Assembly: GCF_001975705.1 (NCBI RefSeq)
Contig: NZ_CP015093.1
Coordinates: forward strand, 3,100,001-3,164,000
DNA from: Salipiger abyssi
Lineage (GTDB): Bacteria > Pseudomonadota > Alphaproteobacteria > Rhodobacterales > Rhodobacteraceae
DNA: 64,000 nucleotides
Reading direction: 5' to 3'
This document shows positions 32,680 through 45,075 of this stretch, in pieces (the stretch's first letter is position 1; each line of letters begins with the position of its first letter). Both the position numbers and the translations under genes were made by a program. The notes beneath the pieces are model-generated. The model made no database searches. It saw only the letters and a list, made by a program, of their open reading frames with translations, and was not told the DNA's origin.

Positions 32680-32701
32680 GCGGCTGAGCTGTCTCAGCCG
32701 C
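32680..32701. terminator. Hairpin between convergent nrdF and lysR
   Basis: GCGGCTGAG (32680-32688) and CTCAGCCGC (32693-32701) form a perfect 9-bp stem with a CTGT loop. It overlaps the last codons of the LysR gene on the other strand. There is no T tract. Confidence 0.55.
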
Positions 32702-33674
32702 TGCGCAGCGACGGCAGATAGGTGCGCTCCTCTATCGGGGCGGCCTCGATGGCGTCGCGGATCATCTCCAGCAGGATGGTCTCGGCGCGGTTCATCACCG
32801 CCTGCGGGTTCCAGACCAGATGCACATCGATGGCCGGCAGCCCGTCATAGGGCGGCGTCTGCCAGAGCAGCCCGTCCTGCACGTCGCGCCGCGCCACATG
32901 CATCGGCAGCGGCCCGACCCCCAGCCCGGCGATGATCATCCGGCGCACCTCTTCGAGATTGCTGGAGGTGCCGGTGATGCGCATGCCCAGCCGCGACTGC
33001 GCCCGCATCAGCGCCACCGGTTTCAGCACATCCTCCAGCCGGTCGGTGTCGAAACTGACCGAGGGCAGCCCGTCGAGATCGTCCGGTGTCAGCCCCTCGC
33101 GCCCGAAAAGCGGGTGATAGGGGCCGCAGAACAGCCCGAAGAATTCCCGGTAGAGCCGGCGGTATTCCAGCCGCGAATTGCGCGCCCTGACGAGGCAGAC
33201 CGCGAAGGAGGCGCGCTTGGCCGAGACCTCGGCCAGCGCCTGGGCGCTGGAATGCACGTCGATCGACAGGCTGGCGCCGGGGTTCTGCGCGTGGAACGCC
33301 GCCAGCACCTGATCAAAAAACGGGCAGACCACATGGCTGGCCATGGCGAGTTTGACATGGCCGCGCACCTCGTCGGTCATTTCGCGCAGCAGTGTCGAGA
33401 GCCGCAGGATGGAGCCGTTGATCTCCACCGCCTCGCGATAGAGCAGCCGCCCGGCATCGGTCAGATCGTAGCGCCCGGGCTGCCGGTTGATGAGCTGCCG
33501 GCCGACGCGATCCTCCAGTCTTTTCAAGGCGGAAGAGACCGAGGGCTGCTTCAGCCGCAGCCGCGCCGCGCCCTCGGTGATGGAGCGCGATTCCGCCAGC
33601 ACGACGAAGGTGCGCAACAGGTTCCAGTCGAGCTCGCGGGCGATGCGTTCCGGGTCATAGGGATCGGGAGGCAT
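32694..33674 (-). CDS. LysR-family transcriptional regulator of the adjacent ABC/catabolic operon
   Basis: 326 residues. Helix-turn-helix LRTFVVLAESRSITEGAARLRLKQPSVSSALKRLEDRVG (about residues 20-57), then the two-lobed effector domain (VKLAMASHVVCPFFDQVLAAF and on). ATG 33674 is preferred to an in-frame TTG at 33686 and has GAGAGGG just upstream. It is divergent from the ABC transporter operon with only 94 bases between, the standard arrangement for a LysR regulator of its neighbour. The effector is unknown; a pathway substrate is likely. Confidence 0.92.
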   Translation of the reverse strand: MPPDPYDPERIARELDWNLLRTFVVLAESRSITEGAARLRLKQPSVSSALKRLEDRVGRQLINRQPGRYDLTDAGRLLYREAVEINGSILRLSTLLREMTDEVRGHVKLAMASHVVCPFFDQVLAAFHAQNPGASLSIDVHSSAQALAEVSAKRASFAVCLVRARNSRLEYRRLYREFFGLFCGPYHPLFGREGLTPDDLDGLPSVSFDTDRLEDVLKPVALMRAQSRLGMRITGTSSNLEEVRRMIIAGLGVGPLPMHVARRDVQDGLLWQTPPYDGLPAIDVHLVWNPQAVMNRAETILLEMIRDAIEAAPIEERTYLPSLRSG

Positions 33675-33685
33675 AGACCCTCTCA

Positions 33686-33705
33686 ATAATGAAAATTCCG
33701 ATTAT
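33686..33705. promoter_or_regulatory. Candidate LysR operator
   Basis: ATAAT (33686-33690) and ATTAT (33701-33705) form an inverted repeat with a 10-base spacer, containing a T-N11-A pattern, in the divergent lysR/permease gap. Further AT-rich bases to 33717 probably hold the promoters. Confidence 0.5.
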
Positions 33706-33768
33706 CTATTTGATCAATGTGACGCGCTTCCGAAGCATCGGCAACAGGAAAGCCATGAGGAATCGCAG

Positions 33769-34635
33769 ATGTCGGTCGAAGCCCGCGAGGCGCGCCAGCC
33801 CTGGATACTGCTCTCGCCCGCGCTGACGGCGGTGGCGCTGTTGTTGCTGGTGCCGCTCTGTTTCATCGTGGTCTACAGCTTCTGGCTGCGCACCGCGACC
33901 GGCGCGGACCAGCCGGGCTTTTACCTCGACAACTGGGCCGAGGCGCTGACCGACCCGTTCTATCGCGACATCCTGCTCAACACGCTGAAGATCGCCGCGA
34001 TCACCACGCTGGTCTGCGCGGTGATGGGCTATCCTTCGGCCTATTTCATCGCCCGGTCGCGCGGCAACAAGGCGATCCTGCTGCTGCTGCTCATGCTGCC
34101 CTTCTGGATCAGCTACATCATCCGCACGATGAGCTGGATCAATATCCTCGGCGTCTCCGGTGCGCTGAACAGCTTTCTGCTCTGGACAGGGATCGTGGGA
34201 GAGCCGATCCAGATGCTCTATAACGAGGCGACGGTGATCCTCGGGCTGGTGCATTTCCTGCTGCCCTTCATGATCCTCAATATCTTTGTGAGCCTCGACG
34301 GCATCGACGTGACGCTGGAGGACGCGGCCAACTCGCTGGGCGCGACGCGCTGGGAGGCGTTTCTGCAAGTGACCCTGCCGCTGTCGCTGCCGGGGCTGGC
34401 CGCCGGCGGGCTGCTCTGCTTCGTGCTGGGGGCGGGGACTTATATCACGCCGCTGGTGCTGGGCGGGCCGACCGATGCGATGTTCGCCAATCTCGTCTTC
34501 GAGGCGATCATCACCCAGCTCAACTGGCCGCTGGGCTCGGCGCTGTCGCTGATGCTGCTGGTGGTGCTGGGCATCCTCGTGGCGATCTACAACCGCTATC
34601 TCGGCATGGCGCAGCTGATGAAGGGGCTGGGCTGA
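33769..34635 (+). CDS. ABC transporter permease, polyamine type (PotB-like)
   Basis: 288 residues, six predicted membrane helices. The cytoplasmic coupling motif for the ATPase is LEDAANSLGATRWEAFLQVTLPLSLPGLAAG (about 183-213). PotB-type N-terminus with a long periplasmic loop after helix 1. It forms the heterodimeric channel with the next gene, whose start overlaps its stop by one base (TGATG). First gene of the operon. Confidence 0.93.
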   Translation: MSVEAREARQPWILLSPALTAVALLLLVPLCFIVVYSFWLRTATGADQPGFYLDNWAEALTDPFYRDILLNTLKIAAITTLVCAVMGYPSAYFIARSRGNKAILLLLLMLPFWISYIIRTMSWINILGVSGALNSFLLWTGIVGEPIQMLYNEATVILGLVHFLLPFMILNIFVSLDGIDVTLEDAANSLGATRWEAFLQVTLPLSLPGLAAGGLLCFVLGAGTYITPLVLGGPTDAMFANLVFEAIITQLNWPLGSALSLMLLVVLGILVAIYNRYLGMAQLMKGLG

Positions 34636-35417
34636 TGGGCTGGTTTGTCATCCGCGGATACGCGATCCTCGTCTATCTCTTCATGTTCCTGCCGGTCGCG
34701 GTGGTGGTGCTGCTGAGCTTCAACGCCTCGCAGTTCGGCAGCTTCCCGATGACCGGCTTTTCCTTCCGCTGGTTCGTGGAGCTGGCGCAGAACGAAGCGA
34801 TCCTGCGCGCCTTCCGCACGTCCATCGTGCTGGGGCTGCTGACGGCGCTGATCTCGACCACGCTTGGCGTGCTGGCGAGCCTCGCGCTGGTGCGCTACCG
34901 GGTGCCGGGGGCGAATGTGGTCTCGACGCTGCTGATCGCGCCGATCCTCGTGCCCGAGGTGGTGCTCGCCGTGGCGCTGCTGCTTTTTCTCAACGTGCTG
35001 GGCGTGAACAAGAGCTTTGCGCTGCTGCTCTTCGGCCATGTCATCTTTACGCTGCCCTTCGTGATCCTCGTGGTGCAGGCGCGGCTGGTGTCGATCCGGC
35101 GCGATGTGGAGGAGGCGGCGATGAGCCTCGGCGCGAGCCCGATGCAGACCTTCTTCCAGATCACCCTGCCGCTAATGCTGCCGGCGGTGCTGGCGGGCGG
35201 GCTCTTTGCCTTCACCATCAGTTTCGACGACATCACCGGCACGCTGTTCTGGAAACCCGGCGGGGTCGAGACCGTGCCAACCCAGATCTTTGCCATGCTG
35301 CGCAATTCCATCAGCCCCGAGATCAACGCGCTGGGCACGGTGATGATCGTCATGACCGTGGGCCTGCCGCTGCTCGGGGCGGCCATCGCAAGACAACTAT
35401 CCAAGAAGAGCGGCTGA
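34635..35417 (+). CDS. ABC transporter permease, polyamine type (PotC-like)
   Basis: 260 residues with six helices. Coupling motif VEEAAMSLGASPMQTFFQITLPLMLPAVLAG (about 157-187) is followed by FTISFDDITGTLFW, characteristic of PotC-type permeases. It shares one base with the preceding permease stop. The binding-protein gene follows after 33 bases. Confidence 0.93.
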   Translation: MGWFVIRGYAILVYLFMFLPVAVVVLLSFNASQFGSFPMTGFSFRWFVELAQNEAILRAFRTSIVLGLLTALISTTLGVLASLALVRYRVPGANVVSTLLIAPILVPEVVLAVALLLFLNVLGVNKSFALLLFGHVIFTLPFVILVVQARLVSIRRDVEEAAMSLGASPMQTFFQITLPLMLPAVLAGGLFAFTISFDDITGTLFWKPGGVETVPTQIFAMLRNSISPEINALGTVMIVMTVGLPLLGAAIARQLSKKSG

Positions 35418-35450
35418 CACCGCTCCGCCTGATCCGACAAGGAGTGAATC

Positions 35451-36602
35451 GTGAAAAAAATCGACAATACAACTCGTTATGAGCGACTGCGTGAGCGTTA
35501 CATGAACGGCGATCTGGACCGCCGCAGCTTTCTCGGCCTGATCGGCGCGGCGGGTCTGGCCTATGGCGTGCAGACGCCCTTTGCCCGCTACGCCAATGCC
35601 CAGACGGTCGGCCAGGTGCGCTTTGACGGCTGGGGCGGCGTGGTCTCCGAGGCGTTCCGCGAATACGCCTTCGACCCCTATACCGCCGATACCGGCATCG
35701 AGGTGGTCGACGGCACCTTTGGCGGCGGCGACGAATATCTCTCCCGCGTCAAGGCCAGCCAGCCGGGCGAATACAATATCGCCCACCTGTCCGGGGTCTT
35801 CGACTATGCGCGCTATCACAATCTCGGCCTCAGCTCCGAGCTGAACGAAGCCAATATCCCCAATCTCGAATTCGTCATCCCCAAGCTGGTGGAGGTGTTC
35901 CGCAAGGTCTCGGGCGGGGCGCTGTCCTGCGTGCCCTATGATTACGGCACCACGGGGCTGGCCTATAATCGCAAATACATCTCCGACGAGGAGATGCAGC
36001 AGAAAGGCGCCAAGATCCTCATCGACGAGGCCTACAAGGGCAAGATCGCCGGCTGGAGCGACTGGCGCACCCGCATCTGGTTCGCCTCGCTGCAGACCGG
36101 GCAGGATCCGAACGGCGCCACCGATATGGAGGCCGTCTGGGACGCGATCCGCGCCCATCGCGATCTGTCGCTGAAATACTGGACCTCGGGCGCCGAGCTG
36201 ATGTCGCTGCTGGCCGAGGAAGAGATCTATGTGACCGAAGGCTGGTCGGGCCGGATCTACGCGCTTCAGGAGCAGGGCCACGACATTGGCTATTACGATC
36301 CGCCCAACGGCTATGGATGGCAGGAATGCCTCTTCGTGCTCAAGGGCTCGCCGATGGAGGCCTGCGAGGAGCTGCTGAACTTCATGCTGGCGCCGGAAAC
36401 CTCCATCGCCGTGGCCGAGGGGCAGAACTACCCGCCGGCGCTCGATCCGAACAAGGTGGATCTGGGGTCCAAGATCCCGACGCTGCCGGCCTTCGATCCC
36501 AAGGGCACGCTGGAGGGGCTGACCTTTGCCGATCCGGAGTACTGGAACGGCAATGAGGCGGACTGGTCCAAGACCTTCGGTCGCGTGCAAAAGGGCTACT
36601 GA
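35451..36602 (+). CDS. ABC transporter substrate-binding protein, PotD/PotF family
   Basis: 383 residues starting with GTG, AAGGAG at 35439-35444. An N-terminal signal of Tat-like form, DLDRRSFLGLIGAAGLAYG, precedes the mature protein. The binding domain shows VRFDGWGGVVSEAFREYAF, SCVPYDYGTTGLAYN and VTEGWSGRIYALQEQG. PotD relatives bind polyamines by acidic and aromatic residues; this one could bind a diamine or a diamino acid. The Tat-type signal suggests export in the folded state. The ligand is inferred from downstream enzymes, not from binding residues. Confidence 0.9.
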   Translation: MKKIDNTTRYERLRERYMNGDLDRRSFLGLIGAAGLAYGVQTPFARYANAQTVGQVRFDGWGGVVSEAFREYAFDPYTADTGIEVVDGTFGGGDEYLSRVKASQPGEYNIAHLSGVFDYARYHNLGLSSELNEANIPNLEFVIPKLVEVFRKVSGGALSCVPYDYGTTGLAYNRKYISDEEMQQKGAKILIDEAYKGKIAGWSDWRTRIWFASLQTGQDPNGATDMEAVWDAIRAHRDLSLKYWTSGAELMSLLAEEEIYVTEGWSGRIYALQEQGHDIGYYDPPNGYGWQECLFVLKGSPMEACEELLNFMLAPETSIAVAEGQNYPPALDPNKVDLGSKIPTLPAFDPKGTLEGLTFADPEYWNGNEADWSKTFGRVQKGY

Positions 36603-36620
36603 CCCCAGACCGAGACATCC

Positions 36621-36681
36621 GCCCCGGGCTCGCCCCGGGGCCTCCCCCTCTAGGCCAGAGGCCCCGGGTCAAGCCCGGGGC
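36621..36681 (+). repeat. 61-base GC-rich inverted repeat within the ABC operon
   Basis: Arms 36621-36644 and 36658-36681 (24 bases each, about three mismatches) flank a 13-base loop. Each arm contains CCCCGGG blocks, giving nested smaller hairpins. It lies between the binding-protein gene and the ATPase gene; likely stabilises the upstream mRNA or attenuates transcription. Confidence 0.75.
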
Positions 36682-36729
36682 GGGTGATGCCTCCGACTTC
36701 CCCTTCCGATCCCACCGACAGGACCGCCC

Positions 36730-37815
36730 ATGAGCTCCGTCACTCTCCGCAACGTCGTGAAGCGCTTTCACAAGTTCACCGCGGTGCACAAGACCAACCT
36801 CGAGATCCCCGACGGCGCCTTCGTCACGCTGCTCGGCCCCTCGGGCTGCGGCAAGACCACCAATCTGCGCATGATCGCGGGGCTCCTCGATCCGACCGAG
36901 GGCGAGATCCTGATCGGCGGCAAGCGCGTGAACGATGTGCCGATCCACAAGCGCAATCTGGGCATCGTGTTCCAGAACTACGCGCTGTTTCCGCACAAGA
37001 CCGTGGCCGAGAACGTCGCCTTCGGGCTGAAATACCGCGACGTGCCAAAATCCGAGATCGCCGGGCGGGTGCAGAAGGCGCTCGATCTGGTGCAGCTGCC
37101 GCATGTGGGCGAGCGCTATCCAAAGGCGCTCTCGGGCGGCCAGCAGCAGCGCATCGCGCTGGCCCGCGCCATCGTCATCGAGCCGGACGTGCTGCTGCTC
37201 GACGAGCCGCTCTCGGCGCTCGACGCCAATCTGCGCGAGGATATGCGGGTGGAGCTGAAGCGCATTCAGGACCAGATCGGCGTCACCACCGTCTTTGTCA
37301 CCCACGACCAGTCCGAGGCGCTGGCCATGTCCGACAGCATCGTGGTGATGAGCGCCGGCCGGGTCGAGCAGATGGGCGCGCCGGAGGAGGTCTATAACAA
37401 CCCCGCCAGCGAATTCGTGGCGAATTTCCTCGGCGCTTCCAACATGTTGCCCGCCGCCTGCACCGCGACCGACGCTGAGGGCGCCACGCTCGACGTTGCG
37501 CCCTTTGGCAGTGTGGCGGTGCCGGCGGAAAAGGCGCAGCGGCTCTCCGGGCCGGGCCCCGCGCAGTTGGTGCTGCGCGCCGAAAAGCTCGCGGTGCTGC
37601 CCGAGGCCGAGGCACCGCCCGGCCTGCTCACCGCGCCCGCGCGGGTCGAGACCGTGGATTACCAGGGCCAGACCGTGCGCTATTTCCTGCGGCTCGGCGA
37701 CCGCCAGCTTCAGGCCATCAACATGATCGACGAACGACCTTTCGAACAGGGCGCCCCGGTGCGGATCGGCTTCCGCCCGAAAGACGCCTCGGCCCTTCCG
37801 GCGGAGACCAAATGA
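36730..37815 (+). CDS. ABC transporter ATPase, polyamine type (PotA-like)
   Basis: 361 residues. Walker A GPSGCGKTT (about 36-44), Q-loop FQNYALFPHKTVAENV, signature LSGGQQQRIALARA (about 135-148), Walker B VLLLDEPLSALD and switch histidine FVTHDQ. A C-terminal TOBE domain (about 270-355) is present. It energises the PotB/PotC-like pair. Its stop overlaps the aminotransferase start (ATGA), tying import to catabolism. Confidence 0.95.
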   Translation: MSSVTLRNVVKRFHKFTAVHKTNLEIPDGAFVTLLGPSGCGKTTNLRMIAGLLDPTEGEILIGGKRVNDVPIHKRNLGIVFQNYALFPHKTVAENVAFGLKYRDVPKSEIAGRVQKALDLVQLPHVGERYPKALSGGQQQRIALARAIVIEPDVLLLDEPLSALDANLREDMRVELKRIQDQIGVTTVFVTHDQSEALAMSDSIVVMSAGRVEQMGAPEEVYNNPASEFVANFLGASNMLPAACTATDAEGATLDVAPFGSVAVPAEKAQRLSGPGPAQLVLRAEKLAVLPEAEAPPGLLTAPARVETVDYQGQTVRYFLRLGDRQLQAINMIDERPFEQGAPVRIGFRPKDASALPAETK

Positions 37816-39149
37816 GCCACCTTTTCTACCAGGGCCACGGGCGCAAACCCGTGCTCGACCAGGCCCGCGGCGTCTATATGTGGGACACCGACGGCAAGCG
37901 CTATCTCGACGGCTCTTCCGGCGCCATGGTCTGCAATATCGGCCATTCCAACGCCAATGTGCTCGCCGCCATGCGCGAGCAGATGGAGTGCGCGACCTTC
38001 GGCTACCGGCTGCATTTCGAGACCGAGGCGAGCGAGCGCCTCGCCGCCAAGACCGTGGAAAAGATGCCGCCGGGGCTGAACAAGGTGTTCTTTGTCTCCG
38101 GCGGGTCGGAGGCCATCGAAAGCGCGATGAAGCTTGCGCGGCAATATGCCGTTTCCACCGGGCGCGGCAGCCGCTGGAAGGTGATCTCGCGCAGCCCGTC
38201 CTATCACGGCTGCACGCTGGGGGCGCTGGCGGTGACCGGCTATCGCTCGCTGACCGCGCCCTTTGCGCCGATGATGCGCGAGATGCCCAAGGTGCCGGCG
38301 CCGCGCGCCTATCTCGACGGGCGCGATCCGGAGGATCCGGCGACCGGGCGTCACTATGCCGATATGCTCGAAGATCTGATCCTGATGGAGGGCGAGGACA
38401 GCGTGCTCGCCTTCCTGCTGGAACCGGTGGGCGGCGCCTCCACCGGCGCGCTGGTGCCGCCGGCGGGCTATATGGAGCGCATCCGCGAGATCTGCGACCG
38501 CCATGGCGTGCTGCTGATCATGGATGAGGTGATGACCGGGGCGGGGCGCACGGGCGCCTTTCTCGGTTGCGAGCACTGGAACATACGGCCCGATATCGTG
38601 GTGCTGTCGAAGGGCTTTGCCGCCGGCTACGCGCCGCTGGGCGGCATCGTGGCGCCGGACTGGATGGTCGCCCCGGTGCTCGATCAGGGCGGGTTCGCCC
38701 ATGGCTTCACCTATGCCGGCAACCCGCTGGCCTGCGCCGCCGGTGCCGCCGTTCTCGACGAGATCGACGCGCAGGGGCTGGTGGAGAACGCCGCGCTCAT
38801 GGGCGCGCGGCTCAAGGCGCGGCTGCACGCGCTGGCGCAGAAACACGAGATCATCGGCGATGTGCGCGGCAAGGGGCTGCTGCTGGCCTTCGAGTTCATG
38901 GCCGATCCGGTGACGAAGAGGCCGCTGCCGAAGGAGCTGCGCGCCTTCGACCGTTTCGTGCAGATCGCCTATGACAACGGACTCATCGTCTATTCCCGCC
39001 GCACCCGCGACGGGGTCGAGGGCGATCACATCCTCGTCTGCCCGCCGCTTATCGTGGGCGATACCCATCTCGACGAGATCGTCGAGGGGCTCGACCTGTC
39101 GCTGAGCCAGTTCCGCGCCGAGCTGCCGGCGCTCGACCGGGTGAGCTGA
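37812..39149 (+). CDS. Class III PLP aminotransferase (candidate N6-acetyl-beta-lysine transaminase)
   Basis: 445 residues. PLP-binding features: SGGSEAIESAMKLARQ, SPSYHGCTLGALAVTGY, LLIMDEVMTGAGRTG and the Schiff-base Lys267 in VVLSKGFAAGYAPLGG. Class III enzymes use omega-amino or beta-amino groups. Followed after one base by a beta-keto acid cleavage enzyme, so the likely product is a 3-keto acid, which implies transamination of a 3-amino acid. This agrees with N6-acetyl-beta-lysine as substrate (inference). A polyamine or beta-alanine substrate is an alternative. Confidence 0.9.
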   Translation: MSHLFYQGHGRKPVLDQARGVYMWDTDGKRYLDGSSGAMVCNIGHSNANVLAAMREQMECATFGYRLHFETEASERLAAKTVEKMPPGLNKVFFVSGGSEAIESAMKLARQYAVSTGRGSRWKVISRSPSYHGCTLGALAVTGYRSLTAPFAPMMREMPKVPAPRAYLDGRDPEDPATGRHYADMLEDLILMEGEDSVLAFLLEPVGGASTGALVPPAGYMERIREICDRHGVLLIMDEVMTGAGRTGAFLGCEHWNIRPDIVVLSKGFAAGYAPLGGIVAPDWMVAPVLDQGGFAHGFTYAGNPLACAAGAAVLDEIDAQGLVENAALMGARLKARLHALAQKHEIIGDVRGKGLLLAFEFMADPVTKRPLPKELRAFDRFVQIAYDNGLIVYSRRTRDGVEGDHILVCPPLIVGDTHLDEIVEGLDLSLSQFRAELPALDRVS

Positions 39150-39150
39150 C

Positions 39151-40077
39151 ATGTCGAAGATCGTGATCACCTGCGCGCTGACCGGCTCGATACACACGCC
39201 CTCCATGTCGCCCTATCTGCCGGTGAGCGCCGACGAGATGGTCGCGCAAGGGGTCGCTGCGGCGGAGGCGGGGGCGGCGATCCTGCACCTGCACGCGCGC
39301 GACCCCGAGACCGGGCGCCCCTCGGCCAGCCCGGCGCATTACGCCGCCTTCCTGCCGCAGCTCAAACAGGCCACCGGCGCGGTGCTGAACCTCACCACCG
39401 GCGGCAGCGCCACCATGACGCTCGACGAGCGTCTGGCCGCGCCGATGGAAATGGCGCCCGAGATGTGTTCGCTCAACATGGGCAGCATGAATTTCGCGCT
39501 CTACCCGATGGCCGAGCGGATCTCGGAGTGGAAACACGACTGGGAGCAGCCGTTTCTGGAGGGCTCGGACGACCTCATCTTCAAGAACACCCCGCGCGAC
39601 ATCGCCCATGTGCTGACCGAGCTGGGCGCGAAACGCGGCGCGCGGTTCGAGTTCGAATGCTACGATGTCGGCCATCTCTACATGCTGCGGCATTTCGTGG
39701 ATCGCGGCATGGTGCAGGGGCCGCTGTTCCTGCAATTCGTCTTCGGGGTGCTGGGCGGGATCGGCGCCGATCCGGAAAATCTCAGCCATATGAAGCGGAT
39801 CGCCGACAAACTTTTCCCGGAAGGCTATGTGTTTTCCGTACTCGCGGCGGGGCGTCACCAGATGCCGCTGGCGGCGATGGCGGCGGCGATGGGCGGGCAT
39901 GTGCGCGTCGGGCTCGAAGACAGCCTCATGCTGTCGCGGGGTCGGCTGGCGCGCTCCAACGCCGAGCAGGTGGAAAAGATCCGCCGCATCGTCGAGGAGC
40001 TGGGCCGCGAGCCCGCCAGCCCCGACGAGGCGCGCGCGCTGCTGGGGCTCAAGGGCGCGGACCGGACGGCGATATGA
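39151..40077 (+). CDS. Beta-keto acid cleavage enzyme (BKACE/Kce family, DUF849)
   Basis: 308 residues. A zinc-dependent TIM barrel that condenses a beta-keto acid with acetyl-CoA to give acetoacetate and a CoA thioester two carbons shorter. The zinc-histidine motif ILHLHARDPETGRPS (about 45-59), LNLTTGG, FEFECYDVGHLYML and GGHVRVGLEDSLML are all present. The family includes 3-keto-5-aminohexanoate cleavage enzyme of lysine fermentation. Here the aminotransferase is immediately upstream and its ATGA overlap links it to the GNAT gene, favouring a 3-keto-6-(acet)amidohexanoate-type substrate. Confidence 0.92.
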   Translation: MSKIVITCALTGSIHTPSMSPYLPVSADEMVAQGVAAAEAGAAILHLHARDPETGRPSASPAHYAAFLPQLKQATGAVLNLTTGGSATMTLDERLAAPMEMAPEMCSLNMGSMNFALYPMAERISEWKHDWEQPFLEGSDDLIFKNTPRDIAHVLTELGAKRGARFEFECYDVGHLYMLRHFVDRGMVQGPLFLQFVFGVLGGIGADPENLSHMKRIADKLFPEGYVFSVLAAGRHQMPLAAMAAAMGGHVRVGLEDSLMLSRGRLARSNAEQVEKIRRIVEELGREPASPDEARALLGLKGADRTAI

Positions 40078-40553
40078 CGATCACGTTCCGACTGGCGGAG
40101 GAGGCCGACATGCCGCGTCTCAACGCCGCGCTGGCGGCGCTGTCCGAGACGCTGGGTGATACCCACCGGTCGAGCGAGGACGACCTGCGCCGCGCGGGCT
40201 TTGGCCGACACCCGGTGTTCCGGGCGATGCTGGCGGAGGCGGCGGGAGAGCTTGTCGGGCTGGCGCTCTATTCGCCGAGCCTCTCGACCTCGAAAGGGCT
40301 TGTGGTGAGCTATGTGTCCGATCTCTGGGTGTCGCCCGAGCGGCGCGGCCAGCGGCTGGGGCCGCGTCTGCTGGCTGCGGTGGCGCGCGACGCGGCGGCG
40401 GTCTGGGGCGCCGGGGCGCTGAAGCTCAACGTCTATCACGACAACCCGGCGGCGCGGCGGTTCTACGACCGGCTCGGATTTGTCCCCGCCGAGCACCATA
40501 CCGAGATGTTTCTGGACGAGGCCGGCATCGCGGCCCTTGGAGCGAGAGAATGA
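40074..40553 (+). CDS. GNAT-family N-acetyltransferase
   Basis: 159 residues. Acetyl-CoA-binding motif A appears as VSYVSDLWVSPERRGQRLGPRLLAAV (about 77-102), then LKLNVYHDNPAARRFYDRLGF near the C-terminus. ATG 40074 overlaps the BKACE stop and its own stop overlaps the deacetylase start (both ATGA). Next to an amidohydrolase and an aminotransferase, an amine acceptor is likely; 6-N-acetylation of beta-lysine is the specific hypothesis. Any other small-molecule amine is possible. Confidence 0.88.
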   Translation: MTITFRLAEEADMPRLNAALAALSETLGDTHRSSEDDLRRAGFGRHPVFRAMLAEAAGELVGLALYSPSLSTSKGLVVSYVSDLWVSPERRGQRLGPRLLAAVARDAAAVWGAGALKLNVYHDNPAARRFYDRLGFVPAEHHTEMFLDEAGIAALGARE

Positions 40554-41572
40554 AAGCGTTTTTCGACGACCGGCAATGGCGCCACGCGCCGCGTCACTTC
40601 ATGGCCAATGGCGCGCTGCTGCCCAACCCCGAAGAGCCGCGCCGCATCGAGATCCTGACCGGGGGCGCGCTTGCGGCGGGTTGCAGCTTTGCCGCGCCGG
40701 GGGATGCGGGGCTCGGCCCCATCGCGGCGCTGCACACCGCCGAATACATCAGCTTCCTGCGCAATATCTACACCCGCTGGCGGCGCATCGAGGGCGCGGG
40801 CGAGGAGGTGATCCCCAATATCCACCCCGCCAGCCGCAGCGACGGCTACCCGAAATCCGCCGTGGGGCAGGCGGGCTGGCATCAGGCCGACACGGCCTGC
40901 CCGATTGCCGAACATACCTGGGAGGCGGCCTACTGGTCGGCGCAGACCGCCATTGCCGGGGCCGATTATCTGCTTGAAGGCGGCACTATGGCATATGCAC
41001 TTTCCCGACCTCCGGGGCATCATGCCTTTGCGGATCTGGCGGGTGGGTTCTGCTTTTTCAACAATTCCGCCATCGCGGCGGAACGGCTGCGCGCCGCCGG
41101 TCTGCGCCCGGCCATCGTCGATGTGGACGTGCATCACGGCAATGGCACGCAGGGCATTTTCTATGGGTGCAGCGACGTGCTGACCGTTTCCATCCATGCC
41201 GATCCGGCGCGGTTCTACCCGTTCTTCTGGGGGCATGCGCAGGAACGCGGCGAGGGGCAGGGGCTGGGCTACAATCTCAACCTGCCGCTGCCGCGCGGCA
41301 CCGGGGATGCCGATTATCTCGCGACGCTGGCCACCGCGCTGGAGCGCTGCGACAGTTTCGGTGCCGATGTCATCGTCGTGGCGCTGGGGCTCGACGCCTC
41401 GGTGGACGATCCGTTCCAGGGGCTCGCCGTCACGCAGGAGGGTTTTGCCCGCATCGGCGCGGCCTTTGCCGCCACCGGGCGCAAGATCCTCTTTGTGCAG
41501 GAGGGCGGCTATGTCAGCGATACGCTGGGCGCCAACCTCACCCGCGTGCTGAGCGGCGCGCAGGGCGGCTAG
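40550..41572 (+). CDS. Histone-deacetylase-fold amidohydrolase (acetylpolyamine amidohydrolase type)
   Basis: 340 residues. Zinc amidohydrolase fold with LSRPPGHHAFADLAGGFCFFNN (catalytic His pair), the zinc site VDVDVHHGNGTQG, and the loop IHADPARFYPFFWGHAQERG that is characteristic of bacterial acetylpolyamine amidohydrolases; LGLDASVDDPF supplies the third ligand. It removes acetyl groups from N-acetylated amines. In this operon it could act on 4-acetamidobutyrate or on an imported acetylated diamine. Last gene of the unit; it converges with the fadB-like gene seven bases away. Confidence 0.9.
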   Translation: MKAFFDDRQWRHAPRHFMANGALLPNPEEPRRIEILTGGALAAGCSFAAPGDAGLGPIAALHTAEYISFLRNIYTRWRRIEGAGEEVIPNIHPASRSDGYPKSAVGQAGWHQADTACPIAEHTWEAAYWSAQTAIAGADYLLEGGTMAYALSRPPGHHAFADLAGGFCFFNNSAIAAERLRAAGLRPAIVDVDVHHGNGTQGIFYGCSDVLTVSIHADPARFYPFFWGHAQERGEGQGLGYNLNLPLPRGTGDADYLATLATALERCDSFGADVIVVALGLDASVDDPFQGLAVTQEGFARIGAAFAATGRKILFVQEGGYVSDTLGANLTRVLSGAQGG

Positions 41573-41579
41573 CGGGGCC

Positions 41580-43772
41580 TCAGGCGGCGCTCTGCGCGGT
41601 GCCGAACCGACCGTAGAAGCTCTCGCCCCGCGCCGCCATCTCGCACAGCAGCGCCGGACAGGCAAAGCGCGTGCCATGCATGTCGCTGAGCGCAGCGCAG
41701 CGTTCGGCGGCATAGGGCGTGCCCAGCATGTCGAGCCAGCTGAACGGCCCGCCCGACCAGGGCGCAAAGCCCCAGCCGAGAATGGCGCCCACATCGCCCT
41801 CGCGTATATCCTCCAGCACACCTGCCTCCAGCGCCCGCACCGCCTCCAGCGCCTGGATGAAGAGCAGCCGGTGCTGCACGTCGATGAGCTCCGGCTGCCC
41901 GGCCTCCGGCGGGTATTGTGCCGTCAGCCCCTCCCAGAGCCCCGCGCGCTTGCCCTTTTCGTCATAGGCATAGAACCCGGCGCCCGCCTTGCGGCCCAGC
42001 CGGCCTGCGTCGGCCATCTCGAAGAGCACCGCGTCGACCGCGCCGTCGGGATAGGCCTCGCCCATCGCCGCGCGGGTGGCGCGGGCGATCTTCACCCCCA
42101 GCTCGATCGAGGTCTCGTCGACCAGTTGCAGCGGCCCCAACGGCATGCCCACCAGCTTGGCGGCATTCTCGACCAGCGCGGGGGCGACGCCTTCGCCGAC
42201 CATGCGGATGCCCTCGTTGATATAGGGGATGATGCAGCGGTTGGCGTAGAAGAACCGCGCGTCGTTGACCACGATGGGCGTCTTGCGGATCTGGCGCACG
42301 AAATCCAGCGCCTTGGCCACGGCGCGCGGCCCGGTCTCGCGGCCCTTGATGATCTCGACCAGCGCCATTTTCTCGACCGGCGAAAAGAAATGGATGCCGA
42401 TATAGTCCTGCGGCCGGTCGAAGGCACGGGCGAGATCCGAGACGGGCAGGGTGGAGGTGTTGGTGGCAAAGACCGCCTCCTGCGCGATCCGCGCCCCGGC
42501 CTCGCGGGTGGCCGTGGCCTTGATCTCGGGGTCTTCGAACACCGCCTCGATCACCAGATCGCAGCCCTGAAGCTCGGCGTAATCGCCGCTGGCGGTGATG
42601 CGGCCCAGCAGCGCGGCCTTGTCCTCCGCCGTCGCCTTGCCGCGTGCGATGCCCTTGTCCATGTAGCTGGCGCTGTAGCTCTTGCCTTTCTCGGCGGCCT
42701 CGGGGCTGCGGTCGAGCAGAACCACCTCGATACCCGCCTGTGCCGCGACCAGCGCGATGCCCGCGCCCATCATGCCGGCGCCGAGAATGCCCAGCTTTTG
42801 CACCGCGCTGTCCGGCGCGTCGGGCCGGTTGGCGCCTTTCTCCAGCGCCTGCTTGCTCTGGAATAGCGTGCGGATCATCGTGCCGGAAGACGGGTTGAGC
42901 ATGACGCTGGTGAACCAGCGCGCCTCGATCTTCAGCGCCGTGTCGAAGGGCACCAGCGCGCCCTCGTAAACCGCCGAGAGCAATGCTTTTGCCGCCGGGT
43001 AGACGCCCTTTGTCTTGCCAATCACCATGGCATTGGCGCCGAGGAAGGTCATGAAGCCCTGCGCACTGTAGGGTGCGCCGCCCGGCAGTTTGTAGCCCCT
43101 GCGGTCCCAGGGTTTGACCAGATCGGCCTCGCTCGCCTCCAGCACCCAGGCGCGGGCGGCGGCGAGCGGGTCGGCGCAGACCTCGTCCACCAGCCCCGCC
43201 GCCTTGGCCTGTTTCGGTGCGCAGAGCTTGCCTTCGAGCAGGTAGGGCGCCGCGCCCATGGCGCCCAGCTTGCGGATCAGCCGGGTGGTGCCGCCGGCGC
43301 CGGGAAAGATGCCGACCTTGATCTCGGGCAGGCCGATCTTGGCCCTGGCATCGTCGGAGACAAAGATCCGGTGACAGGCCAGCGGCAGCTCCAGCCCGAT
43401 CCCCAGCGCGGTGCCGGGCAGGGCGGCGGCGATGGGCTTGCCGCCCTTGCCCTGCGCATCCATGCCGGCGCGCTCGATCTTGCGCAGCAATGTGTGGATG
43501 CGCATGACGCCATCGAAAAGCCCCTGCGCCGGGTCGTCGCCGGCGCTGCGCATCTCGGCCAGCACGTTGAGATCCATGCCCCCGGCAAAGCTGCCCGGCT
43601 TGCCGCTGGTGATCACGATGCCCCGGATATCCGCGTCCTCCAGCGCCGTGTCGATCAGCGCCCCAAGATCAAGAAGACCTTGCAGGCTCATGACATTCAT
43701 GGATTTTCCCGGGCTGTCCCAGGAGATCACCGCGACGCCGTCCGCGCCGGTTTGCAGGGTGAAATCGCTCAT
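41580..43772 (-). CDS. fadB: Fatty-acid oxidation multifunctional protein (enoyl-CoA hydratase / 3-hydroxyacyl-CoA dehydrogenase)
   Basis: 730 residues. N-terminal crotonase domain (about 1-190; oxyanion regions SFAGGMDL and PGTALGIGLELPLACH) fused to an NAD-binding 3-hydroxyacyl-CoA dehydrogenase (GILGAGMMGAGIALVAAQAG, about 330; catalytic HFFSPVEKM) and C-terminal dimerisation domains. It carries out the middle two steps of beta-oxidation. Located 91 bases downstream of the thiolase gene on the same strand, so probably cotranscribed with thiolase and GST. Confidence 0.94.
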   Translation of the reverse strand: MSDFTLQTGADGVAVISWDSPGKSMNVMSLQGLLDLGALIDTALEDADIRGIVITSGKPGSFAGGMDLNVLAEMRSAGDDPAQGLFDGVMRIHTLLRKIERAGMDAQGKGGKPIAAALPGTALGIGLELPLACHRIFVSDDARAKIGLPEIKVGIFPGAGGTTRLIRKLGAMGAAPYLLEGKLCAPKQAKAAGLVDEVCADPLAAARAWVLEASEADLVKPWDRRGYKLPGGAPYSAQGFMTFLGANAMVIGKTKGVYPAAKALLSAVYEGALVPFDTALKIEARWFTSVMLNPSSGTMIRTLFQSKQALEKGANRPDAPDSAVQKLGILGAGMMGAGIALVAAQAGIEVVLLDRSPEAAEKGKSYSASYMDKGIARGKATAEDKAALLGRITASGDYAELQGCDLVIEAVFEDPEIKATATREAGARIAQEAVFATNTSTLPVSDLARAFDRPQDYIGIHFFSPVEKMALVEIIKGRETGPRAVAKALDFVRQIRKTPIVVNDARFFYANRCIIPYINEGIRMVGEGVAPALVENAAKLVGMPLGPLQLVDETSIELGVKIARATRAAMGEAYPDGAVDAVLFEMADAGRLGRKAGAGFYAYDEKGKRAGLWEGLTAQYPPEAGQPELIDVQHRLLFIQALEAVRALEAGVLEDIREGDVGAILGWGFAPWSGGPFSWLDMLGTPYAAERCAALSDMHGTRFACPALLCEMAARGESFYGRFGTAQSAA

Positions 43773-43863
43773 GTCTCTCTCCTCCCGATGTCACGGTCGT
43801 CGCGGTGGCGACAGGCCCGCAGGGCGCGCTCCTCGGCCCGGGGGTGCGGCGGCAGTTTCGGCA

Positions 43864-45075
43864 TCACACCCTCTCGATGATCGTGGCCACGCCCATGCCC
43901 GAGGCGACGCAGAGCGTGGCGAGCCCGGTGGACTTGCCGCTGCGCTCCAGCTCGTCGAGCAGCGTGCCGAGCAGGATCGCGCCGGTGGCGCCCAGCGGGT
44001 GGCCCATGGCGATCGCGCCGCCATTGACGTTGACGCGGCTTTCCTCGACGCCAAAGGCCTGCATGAAGCGCAGCACCACCGCCGAGAATGCCTCGTTCAC
44101 CTCGAAAAGGTCGATATCGCCGATCTCCATGCCGCTCTCGCGCAGGATCCGCTCGGTCACCGGCACCGGGCCGGTGAGCATGATCGTGGGGTCGGTGCCG
44201 ATCCGGGCGCTGGCGCGGATGCGGGCGCGCGGGGTCAGGCCGTGCGCCTCGCCAAAGGTCTTGTCGCCGATCAGCAGCGCCGCCGCGCCATCGACAATGC
44301 CCGAGCTGTTGCCGGCATGGTGGATATGTGCGATCCGCTCCAGATGCGGGTATTTCATCAGCGCCACCTGATCGAAACCGGGCATCCCCTCGCCCATCTC
44401 GCGAAAGGCGGGGGTGAGCGCGCCGAGGCTCTGCATGTCGGTCTCGGGGCGCATATGCTCGTCGCGGTCGAGAATGGTCAGCCCGTTTATATCCGTCACC
44501 GGGATCACCGAGCGGGCGAAACGGCCCTCCTCCCAGGCGCGGGCGGCGCGGCGCTGGCTTTCCACCGCCAGCGCATCGGCGTCGTCGCGGGTGATGCCGT
44601 ATTCGGTGGCGATGATGTCGGCGGCGATGCCCTGCGGCACGAAATAGCTCTGCATGGCGAGGCTCGGATCGACGGCGATGGCGGCGCCGTCGCTGCCCAT
44701 GGCGACACGGCCCATCATCTCGACCCCGCCGGCAATATAGCCATGCCCGGCGCCGCCGCGGATCTGGCTGGCGGCAAGGTTCACCGCCTCCAGCCCCGAG
44801 GCGCAGAAACGGTTGATGCTGAGCCCGGGAATGCGCTCGTCGAGCTCCGAGGCCAGCACGGCGGAGCGCGCCAGACAGCCGCCCTGTTCGCCGACCTGCG
44901 TGGCGTTGCCCCAGATCACGTCCTCGACCGCATGGCCGTCGAGCCCGTTGCGCGCGGCGATGGCGTTGAGGGTCAGCGCCGAGAGCCGCAGCGCGGTCAC
45001 CTCGTGCAGCGCGCCGTCCTTGCGGCCCCGGCCACGCGGGGTGCGGAGCGCGTCGTAGATATAGACATCGCTCAT
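43864..45075 (-). CDS. fadA: Acetyl-CoA acyltransferase (thiolase, FadA-like)
   Basis: 403 residues. Active-site residues are all visible: nucleophile Cys in NRFCASGLEAVN (about 90), His in GGAIAMGHPLGATGA (about 355) and the second Cys in LCVASGMGVA (about 388). It completes beta-oxidation with the adjacent multifunctional protein. Start ATG 45075 lies four bases after the GST stop, indicating an operon. Confidence 0.94.
   Translation of the reverse strand: MSDVYIYDALRTPRGRGRKDGALHEVTALRLSALTLNAIAARNGLDGHAVEDVIWGNATQVGEQGGCLARSAVLASELDERIPGLSINRFCASGLEAVNLAASQIRGGAGHGYIAGGVEMMGRVAMGSDGAAIAVDPSLAMQSYFVPQGIAADIIATEYGITRDDADALAVESQRRAARAWEEGRFARSVIPVTDINGLTILDRDEHMRPETDMQSLGALTPAFREMGEGMPGFDQVALMKYPHLERIAHIHHAGNSSGIVDGAAALLIGDKTFGEAHGLTPRARIRASARIGTDPTIMLTGPVPVTERILRESGMEIGDIDLFEVNEAFSAVVLRFMQAFGVEESRVNVNGGAIAMGHPLGATGAILLGTLLDELERSGKSTGLATLCVASGMGVATIIERV

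What the first reader, a model, noticed from the sequence alone, without database searches (positions are those of the whole stretch)
33769..41572. Operon encoding a candidate complete acetylated beta-lysine catabolic pathway
An eight-gene unit combines a polyamine-type ABC importer with an aminotransferase, a beta-keto acid cleavage enzyme, a GNAT acetyltransferase and an acetylpolyamine-amidohydrolase-like enzyme; the last five genes are joined by ATGA overlaps or a one-base gap. These four activities equal the steps described biochemically for a Pseudomonas: beta-lysine 6-N-acetylation, N6-acetyl-beta-lysine transamination (EC 2.6.1.65), cleavage of 3-keto-6-acetamidohexanoate with acetyl-CoA to acetoacetate and 4-acetamidobutyryl-CoA, and 4-acetamidobutyrate deacetylation (EC 3.5.1.63). 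To my knowledge genes for this route are not generally assigned. The mapping is inference from enzyme classes.
Basis: partly seen in the sequence, partly recalled or inferred. Interest (0 to 1): 0.85.

Follow-up and report, generated by a model that had tools for sequence, protein, structure and literature searches.

The report
Conserved acetylated beta-lysine degradation operon
A bacterium carries an import-and-breakdown operon that most likely eats beta-lysine, or its acetylated form used by archaea against salt stress; the same core recurs in many bacteria with its parts swapped, which gives gene candidates for enzymes known only from old biochemistry.

Summary
In detail: a divergent LysR gene and an eight-gene operon (Pot-like importer, class III aminotransferase, BKACE/DUF849, GNAT, HDAC-type amidohydrolase) with the stated overlaps. 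In 127 non-duplicate loci chosen by the aminotransferase alone, 69 have BKACE nearby, 49 have a 3-oxoacid CoA-transferase instead, 0 have both, 9 neither. A thiolase is in the gene chain of 36 of 49 CoA-transferase loci and 0 of 69 BKACE loci. The aminotransferase tree needs at least 6 exchanges. Two unrelated beta-keto acid chemistries replacing each other imply that the aminotransferase makes a beta-keto acid from a beta-amino acid. The GNAT falls nearest thialysine/diamine/ornithine omega-N-acetyltransferases, fitting acetylation of a distal amine that HDAC or M20 later removes. gabT/gabD lie elsewhere in the genome. The window genome has no lysine 2,3-aminomutase match, so the substrate is probably imported. 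Beta-lysine or N6-acetyl-beta-lysine fits best, but no assay shows it.

The parts
32694..33686 (-). LysR-type regulator, divergent from the operon
   Evidence: Pfam HTH_1 and LysR_substrate; divergent LysR also in many related clusters
33695..33722 (.). candidate operator in the LysR-operon gap (window ATTCCGATTATCTATTTGATCAATGTGA)
   Evidence: inner 13-mer with at most 3 mismatches in 30 of 33 Pot-type gaps, the window's own included; in 13 of 660 letter-shuffled gaps
33769..34635 (+). ABC permease, PotB/PotH-like
   Evidence: below the equivalog cut-offs
34635..35417 (+). ABC permease, PotC/PotI-like
   Evidence: below the equivalog cut-offs
35451..36602 (+). periplasmic binding protein, distantly PotD/PotF-like
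   Evidence: SBP_bac_8; best solved relative is a putrescine-binding protein, 47.3 bits
36730..37815 (+). ABC transporter ATPase, PotA/PhnT2-like
   Evidence: TIGR03265 369.6 bits, cut-off 457.7; TIGR01187 potA 352.9 bits, cut-off 355.6
37812..39149 (+). class III aminotransferase; proposed N6-acetyl-beta-lysine aminotransferase (EC 2.6.1.65 candidate)
   Evidence: Aminotran_3; BKACE or CoA-transferase within 9.5 kb in 118 of 127 loci
39151..40077 (+). BKACE (DUF849); proposed 6-acetamido-3-oxohexanoate:acetyl-CoA cleavage enzyme
   Evidence: PF05853 368.1 bits; H46, H48, R252, E256, D257 invariant in 35 of 35 aligned sequences
40074..40553 (+). GNAT; proposed beta-lysine N6-acetyltransferase
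   Evidence: profile of 12 operon GNATs best matches thialysine acetyltransferase 12jc, 105.3 bits
40550..41572 (+). HDAC/APAH-type Zn amidohydrolase; proposed 4-acetamidobutyrate or 4-acetamidobutyryl-CoA deacetylase
   Evidence: Hist_deacetyl; best solved relative 3men, 297 bits; H157, H158, D193, H195, D282, Y321 invariant in 31 of 31

Best explanation
The operon imports beta-lysine and/or N6-acetyl-beta-lysine and degrades it to GABA plus acetoacetate. Proposed steps: (1) Pot-like ABC import; (2) the GNAT acetylates the N6 amine, which keeps the later 3-keto acid from cyclising; (3) the aminotransferase removes the C3 amine, giving 6-acetamido-3-oxohexanoate; (4) BKACE with acetyl-CoA gives acetoacetate and 4-acetamidobutyryl-CoA; (5) the HDAC-type enzyme removes the acetyl group; (6) GABA goes to succinate by gabT/gabD elsewhere in the genome. 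In relatives step 4 is done instead by 3-oxoacid CoA-transferase plus thiolase, and step 5 mostly by an M20 deacylase. Shown by sequence: the families, the operon, the conservation and the exchange of modules. Inferred from the exchange and families: beta-amino acid substrate, beta-keto intermediate, omega-N-acetyl group. Inferred only by best fit: the six-carbon beta-lysine skeleton.
For: Families and overlaps. Over 127 loci picked by the aminotransferase alone: BKACE 69, CoA-transferase 49, both 0, neither 9; thiolase in the chain of 36 of 49 CoA-transferase loci and 0 of 69 BKACE loci; HDAC in the chain of 61 of 69 BKACE loci, M20 in 40 of 49 CoA-transferase loci. At least 6 exchanges on the aminotransferase tree, 5 forced by starred branches; 0 of 500 shuffles as low, mean 37.8. 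The CoA-transferase subunits tested (L027) pass TIGR02429 and TIGR02428, 3-oxoacid CoA-transferase. GNAT relatives: thialysine acetyltransferase, diamine acetyltransferases, L-ornithine N5-acetyltransferase NATA1. gabT 574.4 bits (cut-off 506.65) beside gabD 723.4 bits (cut-off 646.35) on another contig. Five paralogue loci at 42-45% identity show none of BKACE, CoA-transferase, GNAT, HDAC or M20 (L040-L044). [quoted passage not shown]
Against: No enzyme was assayed. The GNAT is not of the AblB family (no TIGR03827 match at E 0.001). The BKACE passes NF053538, named 3,5-dioxohexanoate:acetyl-CoA acetone transferase (503.7 bits, cut-off 430). No lysine 2,3-aminomutase was found near a cluster. 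HDAC and M20 occur together in 6 of 127 chains, so they are not always simple substitutes. In 9 of 127 loci neither BKACE nor CoA-transferase is near. Some distant aminotransferase paralogues also have a BKACE nearby (L105-L107). Recurrent extra genes (FAD oxidase plus RidA, alanine-racemase-like plus a second M20, creatininase, DMFA2, MR_MLE plus DgcN) are not explained by plain beta-lysine. The binding protein resembles polyamine binders only weakly. The loci are related, and sign tests on 5 independent pairs did not reach 0.05.
Confidence: 0.6

Rival explanations
1. The same logic (omega-acetylation, transamination, beta-keto cleavage, deacetylation) but for another beta-amino acid with a distal amine, such as 3,5-diaminohexanoate or 3,5-diaminopentanoate, or for an amide or lactam of a beta-amino acid.
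For: The comparative evidence fixes the chemistry, not the chain. Recurrent amide hydrolases (creatininase family; DMFA2) and racemase plus M20 suggest a more complex imported substrate in some lineages.
Against: Beta-lysine is the only such compound for which I recall this sequence of steps being described; the GNAT's nearest solved relatives act on lysine- or ornithine-like amines and diamines.
Confidence: 0.25
2. Acetylpolyamine catabolism: import of acetylputrescine, acetylcadaverine or acetylspermidine, deacetylation by the HDAC-type enzyme and transamination of the terminal amine.
For: Pot-like importer; HDAC-type enzyme closest to acetylpolyamine amidohydrolases; GNAT relatives include diamine acetyltransferases.
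Against: Known polyamine breakdown has no beta-keto acid (recalled), yet 118 of 127 loci carry BKACE or CoA-transferase. The importer is His-type in 53, Pot-type in 37, Liv-type in 4 and not detected in 33 of 127 loci.
Confidence: 0.08
3. The BKACE acts on 3,5-dioxohexanoate as its NCBIfam name says, and the operon serves a triacetate-type compound.
For: NF053538 passed at 503.7 bits, cut-off 430.
Against: The operon has no ring-opening or dehydrogenase gene; an aminotransferase, GNAT and deacylase would have no role. BKACE groups are promiscuous (PMC4922564, section 22).
Confidence: 0.04

Closest known systems
Acetylated L-beta-lysine pathway of a Pseudomonas (biochemistry of Barker and co-workers; recalled, not read)
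   Same: all four enzyme classes needed, plus gabT/gabD in trans
   Different: I found no gene assignment in the library searched; activity not tested here; a second route with CoA-transferase and thiolase exists in relatives
Bacillus subtilis kamA-yodPQRST operon (gene content recalled; PMC6522883 passages, name KamA BSU19690 and YodT BSU19740, both SigE, roles undetermined)
   Same: as recalled, class III aminotransferase, CoA-transferase pair, M20 hydrolase and N6-acetyltransferase as in the CoA-transferase variant; 3i4j is listed as the structure for YodT (PMC6522883) and is the best solved match of the window enzyme
   Different: the window has BKACE and HDAC in place of CoA-transferase and M20, an importer, no KamA and no AblB-type GNAT; I could not fetch the Bacillus DNA
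Clostridial lysine fermentation (kamA, kamDE, kdd, kce, kal; gene set recalled)
   Same: a BKACE-family enzyme cleaves a beta-keto acid with acetyl-CoA
   Different: NF052387 (Kce) only 242.4 bits, cut-off 382; no aminomutase genes in the operon; acetylated rather than free amine proposed
Acetylpolyamine amidohydrolases (3men, 9gkz, 6phr, 3q9b)
   Same: family and catalytic residues of the last gene
   Different: operon context points to beta-amino acid breakdown

Membership tests
BKACE (DUF849, PF05853) | profile score over the curated cut-off | tested here: met
   368.1 bits, cut-off 24.8
BKACE (DUF849, PF05853) | metal ligands and catalytic residues (His46, His48, Glu, Arg, Asp; assignment recalled from Kce) | tested here: met
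   invariant in 35 of 35 aligned sequences, window included (loci fetched before only)
BKACE (DUF849, PF05853) | acetyl-CoA dependent cleavage of the proposed beta-keto acid | not testable with these tools
   needs enzyme assay
Acetylated beta-lysine catabolic pathway | omega-amine acetyltransferase of a fitting clade | tested here: met
   profile of 12 GNATs best matches thialysine acetyltransferase, 105.3 bits; clade level only, and diamine acetyltransferases are near too
Acetylated beta-lysine catabolic pathway | aminotransferase yields a beta-keto acid | tested here: inconclusive
   strong but indirect: BKACE or 3-oxoacid CoA-transferase in 118 of 127 loci, never both
Acetylated beta-lysine catabolic pathway | deacetylase in the unit | tested here: met
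   HDAC-type with conserved active site
Acetylated beta-lysine catabolic pathway | GABA to succinate enzymes in the same genome | tested here: met
Acetylated beta-lysine catabolic pathway | activity on beta-lysine intermediates | not testable with these tools
   needs assays
Bacillus kamA-yod type operon | lysine 2,3-aminomutase and AblB in the unit | tested here: not met
   no TIGR03820 match in the window genome; 0 of 47 genomes with the aminotransferase (15 weaker matches) and 0 of 12 named genomes (6 weaker, best 407.8 bits in Desulfopila) reach the 525.4 cut-off; the window GNAT gives no TIGR03827 match
Clostridial Kce lysine fermentation | Kce equivalog score and kam genes | tested here: not met
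   242.4 bits, cut-off 382; no match to a recalled KamA-type motif in 133 loci
Acetylpolyamine catabolism | no beta-keto acid step in the unit | tested here: not met
   BKACE in the operon; BKACE or CoA-transferase in 118 of 127 loci

The most novel reading that the evidence does not exclude
A widespread modular system (Alpha-, Gamma- and Betaproteobacteria, Desulfobacterota) scavenges the archaeal salt-stress solute N6-acetyl-beta-lysine and free beta-lysine. The aminotransferase is the fixed hub. Two unrelated C-C cleavage chemistries, two deacylase folds and three importer types have replaced one another repeatedly, and absence of the GNAT marks lineages that take up the already acetylated osmolyte.
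Probability: 0.35. Interest if true: 0.75.

Novelty: new variant of a known kind. Interest (0 to 1): 0.62.

Why it matters
It gives gene candidates for steps known as activities (N6-acetyl-beta-lysine aminotransferase EC 2.6.1.65 and the acetamidobutyryl deacetylase; that these lack genes is recalled). [quoted passage not shown] mostly listings). The 127-locus map gives a ready test set: two chemistries that should yield the same acyl-CoA. It may also explain the uncharacterised Bacillus yodT-kamA genes.

Tried and rejected
Lysine 2,3-aminomutase or AblB nearby as direct proof of beta-lysine: not found. AblB: 0 of 398 phylum genomes over its cut-off, 63 weaker and mostly partial matches. AblA. 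Motif. NCBIfam control runs for PRK06917 and PRK06915 each passed in 1 of 14 control genomes without saying which, so they were not used. A Bacillus kamA operon for comparison was not reached (one search listed no Bacillus; one search failed). Papers: one search found 0; one search found 1 (a Methanothrix paper, listing only); one search found 1 (a clinical metabolomics paper, listing only); one search found 10, of which I saw passages in three (PMC11201294, PMC13422317, PMC1224877, all on synthesis or accumulation of the solute) and the rest as listing; one search found 10 (listing, two of them among those three); two searches found 0. Barker's papers were not looked up and the 2014 BKACE paper is not held, so what I say of them is recalled. 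Structure prediction was not run: a model would not settle the substrate. BKACE pocket: the position of Kce Glu14, which PMC10470551 says interacts with the 5-amino group (passages), reads Ile14 in the window by my own reading of the N-terminus against recalled Kce numbering; the solved relatives printed (3e02, 3e49, 8rio) carry the same Ile, so it does not discriminate.

Rows left out of the tally of 127: 6 duplicates (L119, L133, L156, L167, L171, L180). Paralogue loci L040-L044 (42-45%) and plasmid loci L104-L107 (42-51%) were not entered. Of these, L106 has a BKACE gene that overlaps its aminotransferase gene by 4 bases, L107 has a BKACE about 3 kb away on the other strand, and L105 has one about 5 kb away in an aromatic-degradation unit, so aminotransferase-BKACE neighbourhood is not exclusive to the orthologue group. 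One phylum hit (G267) was not fetched. 'Chain' means same-strand matches with gaps under 1800 bases, and 'near' within 9.5 kb, so counts depend on these limits. The nine loci with neither module are L024, L039, L096, L097, L128, L141, L151, L159, L183. The GNAT profile used 12 of the 58 loci with a GNAT in the chain.
Full report
WHAT IS THERE. The junctions are TGATG (one shared base), ATGA overlaps at 37812, 40074 and 40550, and a one-base gap before 39151. Pfam and NCBIfam place the genes as a Pot-like ABC importer, a class III aminotransferase, a BKACE, a GNAT and an HDAC-type amidohydrolase. The catalytic residues of BKACE and HDAC (assignments recalled from the families) are invariant in 35 of 35 and 31 of 31 aligned sequences, the window's included (loci fetched).

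CONSERVATION. Among 100 genomes of the same family (99 genera), 27 including the window's own carry the aminotransferase at 61% identity or more, one at 53%, and the other matches listed lie at 47% or less. In 398 genomes of the phylum 23, the window's own included, match at E 1e-120 or better. A scan of named species, capped at the best 80 of 417 relatives, gave loci in Rhodobacterales, rhizobia, Halomonas, Marinobacter, Saccharospirillum, Pseudomonas sp. BN417, Burkholderia, Paraburkholderia and Desulfobacterota. Annotated plasmid records of Parasedimentitalea, Phyllobacterium, Shinella, a Rhodobacteraceae isolate and Pararhizobium show such units.

THE KEY RESULT. I tallied 127 non-duplicate loci chosen only by the aminotransferase (133 before 6 duplicates were dropped). 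BKACE is near it in 69, CoA-transferase subunits A and B in 49, both in 0, neither in 9. The CoA-transferase subunits of L027 pass the 3-oxoacid CoA-transferase models. A thiolase is in the chain of 36 of 49 CoA-transferase loci and of 0 of 69 BKACE loci; the window has a thiolase-like gene nearby, but on the other strand and outside the chain. On a FastTree of the aminotransferase the two states need at least 6 changes, 5 forced by starred branches; none of 500 shuffles was as low (mean 37.8). For example, three BKACE+HDAC+GNAT loci (L148, L158, L174) sit inside a CoA-transferase+M20 clade. BKACE, and CoA-transferase with thiolase, are two unrelated ways to cleave a beta-keto acid. Their mutual exclusion is what one expects if the aminotransferase makes a beta-keto acid from a beta-amino acid. 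The loci are related, however: sign tests on 5 independent pairs did not reach 0.05.

THE ACETYL CYCLE. HDAC is in the chain of 61 of 69 BKACE loci and 5 of 49 CoA-transferase loci; M20 in 4 of 69 and 40 of 49; both together in 6 of 127. A profile of 12 of the operon GNATs (of 58 loci with one in the chain) best matches thialysine acetyltransferase (105.3 bits), then an unnamed probable acetyltransferase (103.9), diamine acetyltransferase 2 (89.7), GNAT8 and, further down, diamine acetyltransferase 1 and L-ornithine N5-acetyltransferase NATA1. The named ones acetylate a terminal amine (from the names and recall). 55 of 127 loci have a deacylase but no GNAT in the chain; 5 have a GNAT without a deacylase. 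This asymmetry fits uptake of an already acetylated compound in the first group; that is inference, and a GNAT could lie elsewhere in those genomes.

SUBSTRATE. Beta-lysine fits because acetylation, transamination, acetyl-CoA dependent cleavage and deacetylation are the steps described for it in a Pseudomonas (recalled). Acetylation would also stop 6-amino-3-oxohexanoate from closing to a pyrroline (my inference). [quoted passage not shown] The window genome has no lysine 2,3-aminomutase match; of 47 genomes with the aminotransferase 15 have weaker matches and 0 pass AblA's cut-off; of 12 named genomes 6 have weaker matches (best 407.8 bits, Desulfopila) and 0 pass. The substrate would thus be imported in the window's organism. 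gabT and gabD lie side by side on another contig, both over their cut-offs.

AGAINST. No activity is shown. The BKACE passes a model named for 3,5-dioxohexanoate. The GNAT is not AblB. Several accessory genes recur without explanation: FAD oxidase with RidA, racemase with a second M20, creatininase, DMFA2, MR_MLE with DgcN. They hint that some lineages import amides, lactams or other stereoisomers. Distant paralogous aminotransferases can also have a BKACE nearby (L105-L107).

REGULATION. A motif in the LysR-operon gap (window 33695-33722) is found in 30 of 33 Pot-type gaps, the window's included (37 of 127 loci are Pot-type), against 13 of 660 shuffled ones. The species are related, so this is suggestive only.

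VERDICT. The operon is real and its chemistry class is well supported (about 0.9 for an omega-N-acetylated beta-amino acid). Beta-lysine as the true substrate is the best but unproven choice (about 0.6). I saw no paper in the held library that names genes for it (mostly listings), with the limit that most subscription papers are not held.

Noticed in passing
window 36603-36729: GC-rich inverted repeat in the gap between the binding-protein gene and the ATPase gene (seen by eye), like the stem-loops that often follow binding-protein genes.
   Followed up: no
window 41580-45075 (-): Convergent 730-aa fatty-acid-oxidation-like gene and a thiolase-like gene just downstream (by eye; the thiolase also); on the other strand and not counted as part of the operon.
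   Followed up: partly
L018:6689-7537, L022:12767-13558, L027:6293-7084: Creatininase-family gene inside the His-type importer genes (9 of 127 loci); possibly a hydrolase for a cyclic or amide form of the substrate, or for 2-pyrrolidone.
   Followed up: partly
   Followed up: partly
L102:13168-15443, L099:11358-13644: A second M20 amidohydrolase plus an alanine-racemase-like gene at the end of some clusters.
   Followed up: partly
L122:3799-8441, L087 and L088, L013, L152: FAD amine oxidase (DAO) and RidA genes recur together in many clusters, suggesting an imine-forming side step.
   Followed up: partly
L014:13741-15799, L021:866-2945: MR_MLE enolase and DgcN/DUF1611 genes at the end of Liv-type clusters and one Pot-type cluster.
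   Followed up: no
L096 (gap of about 206 bp between aminotransferase and GNAT): Locus that keeps aminotransferase, GNAT and HDAC but lacks BKACE and CoA-transferase.
   Followed up: no
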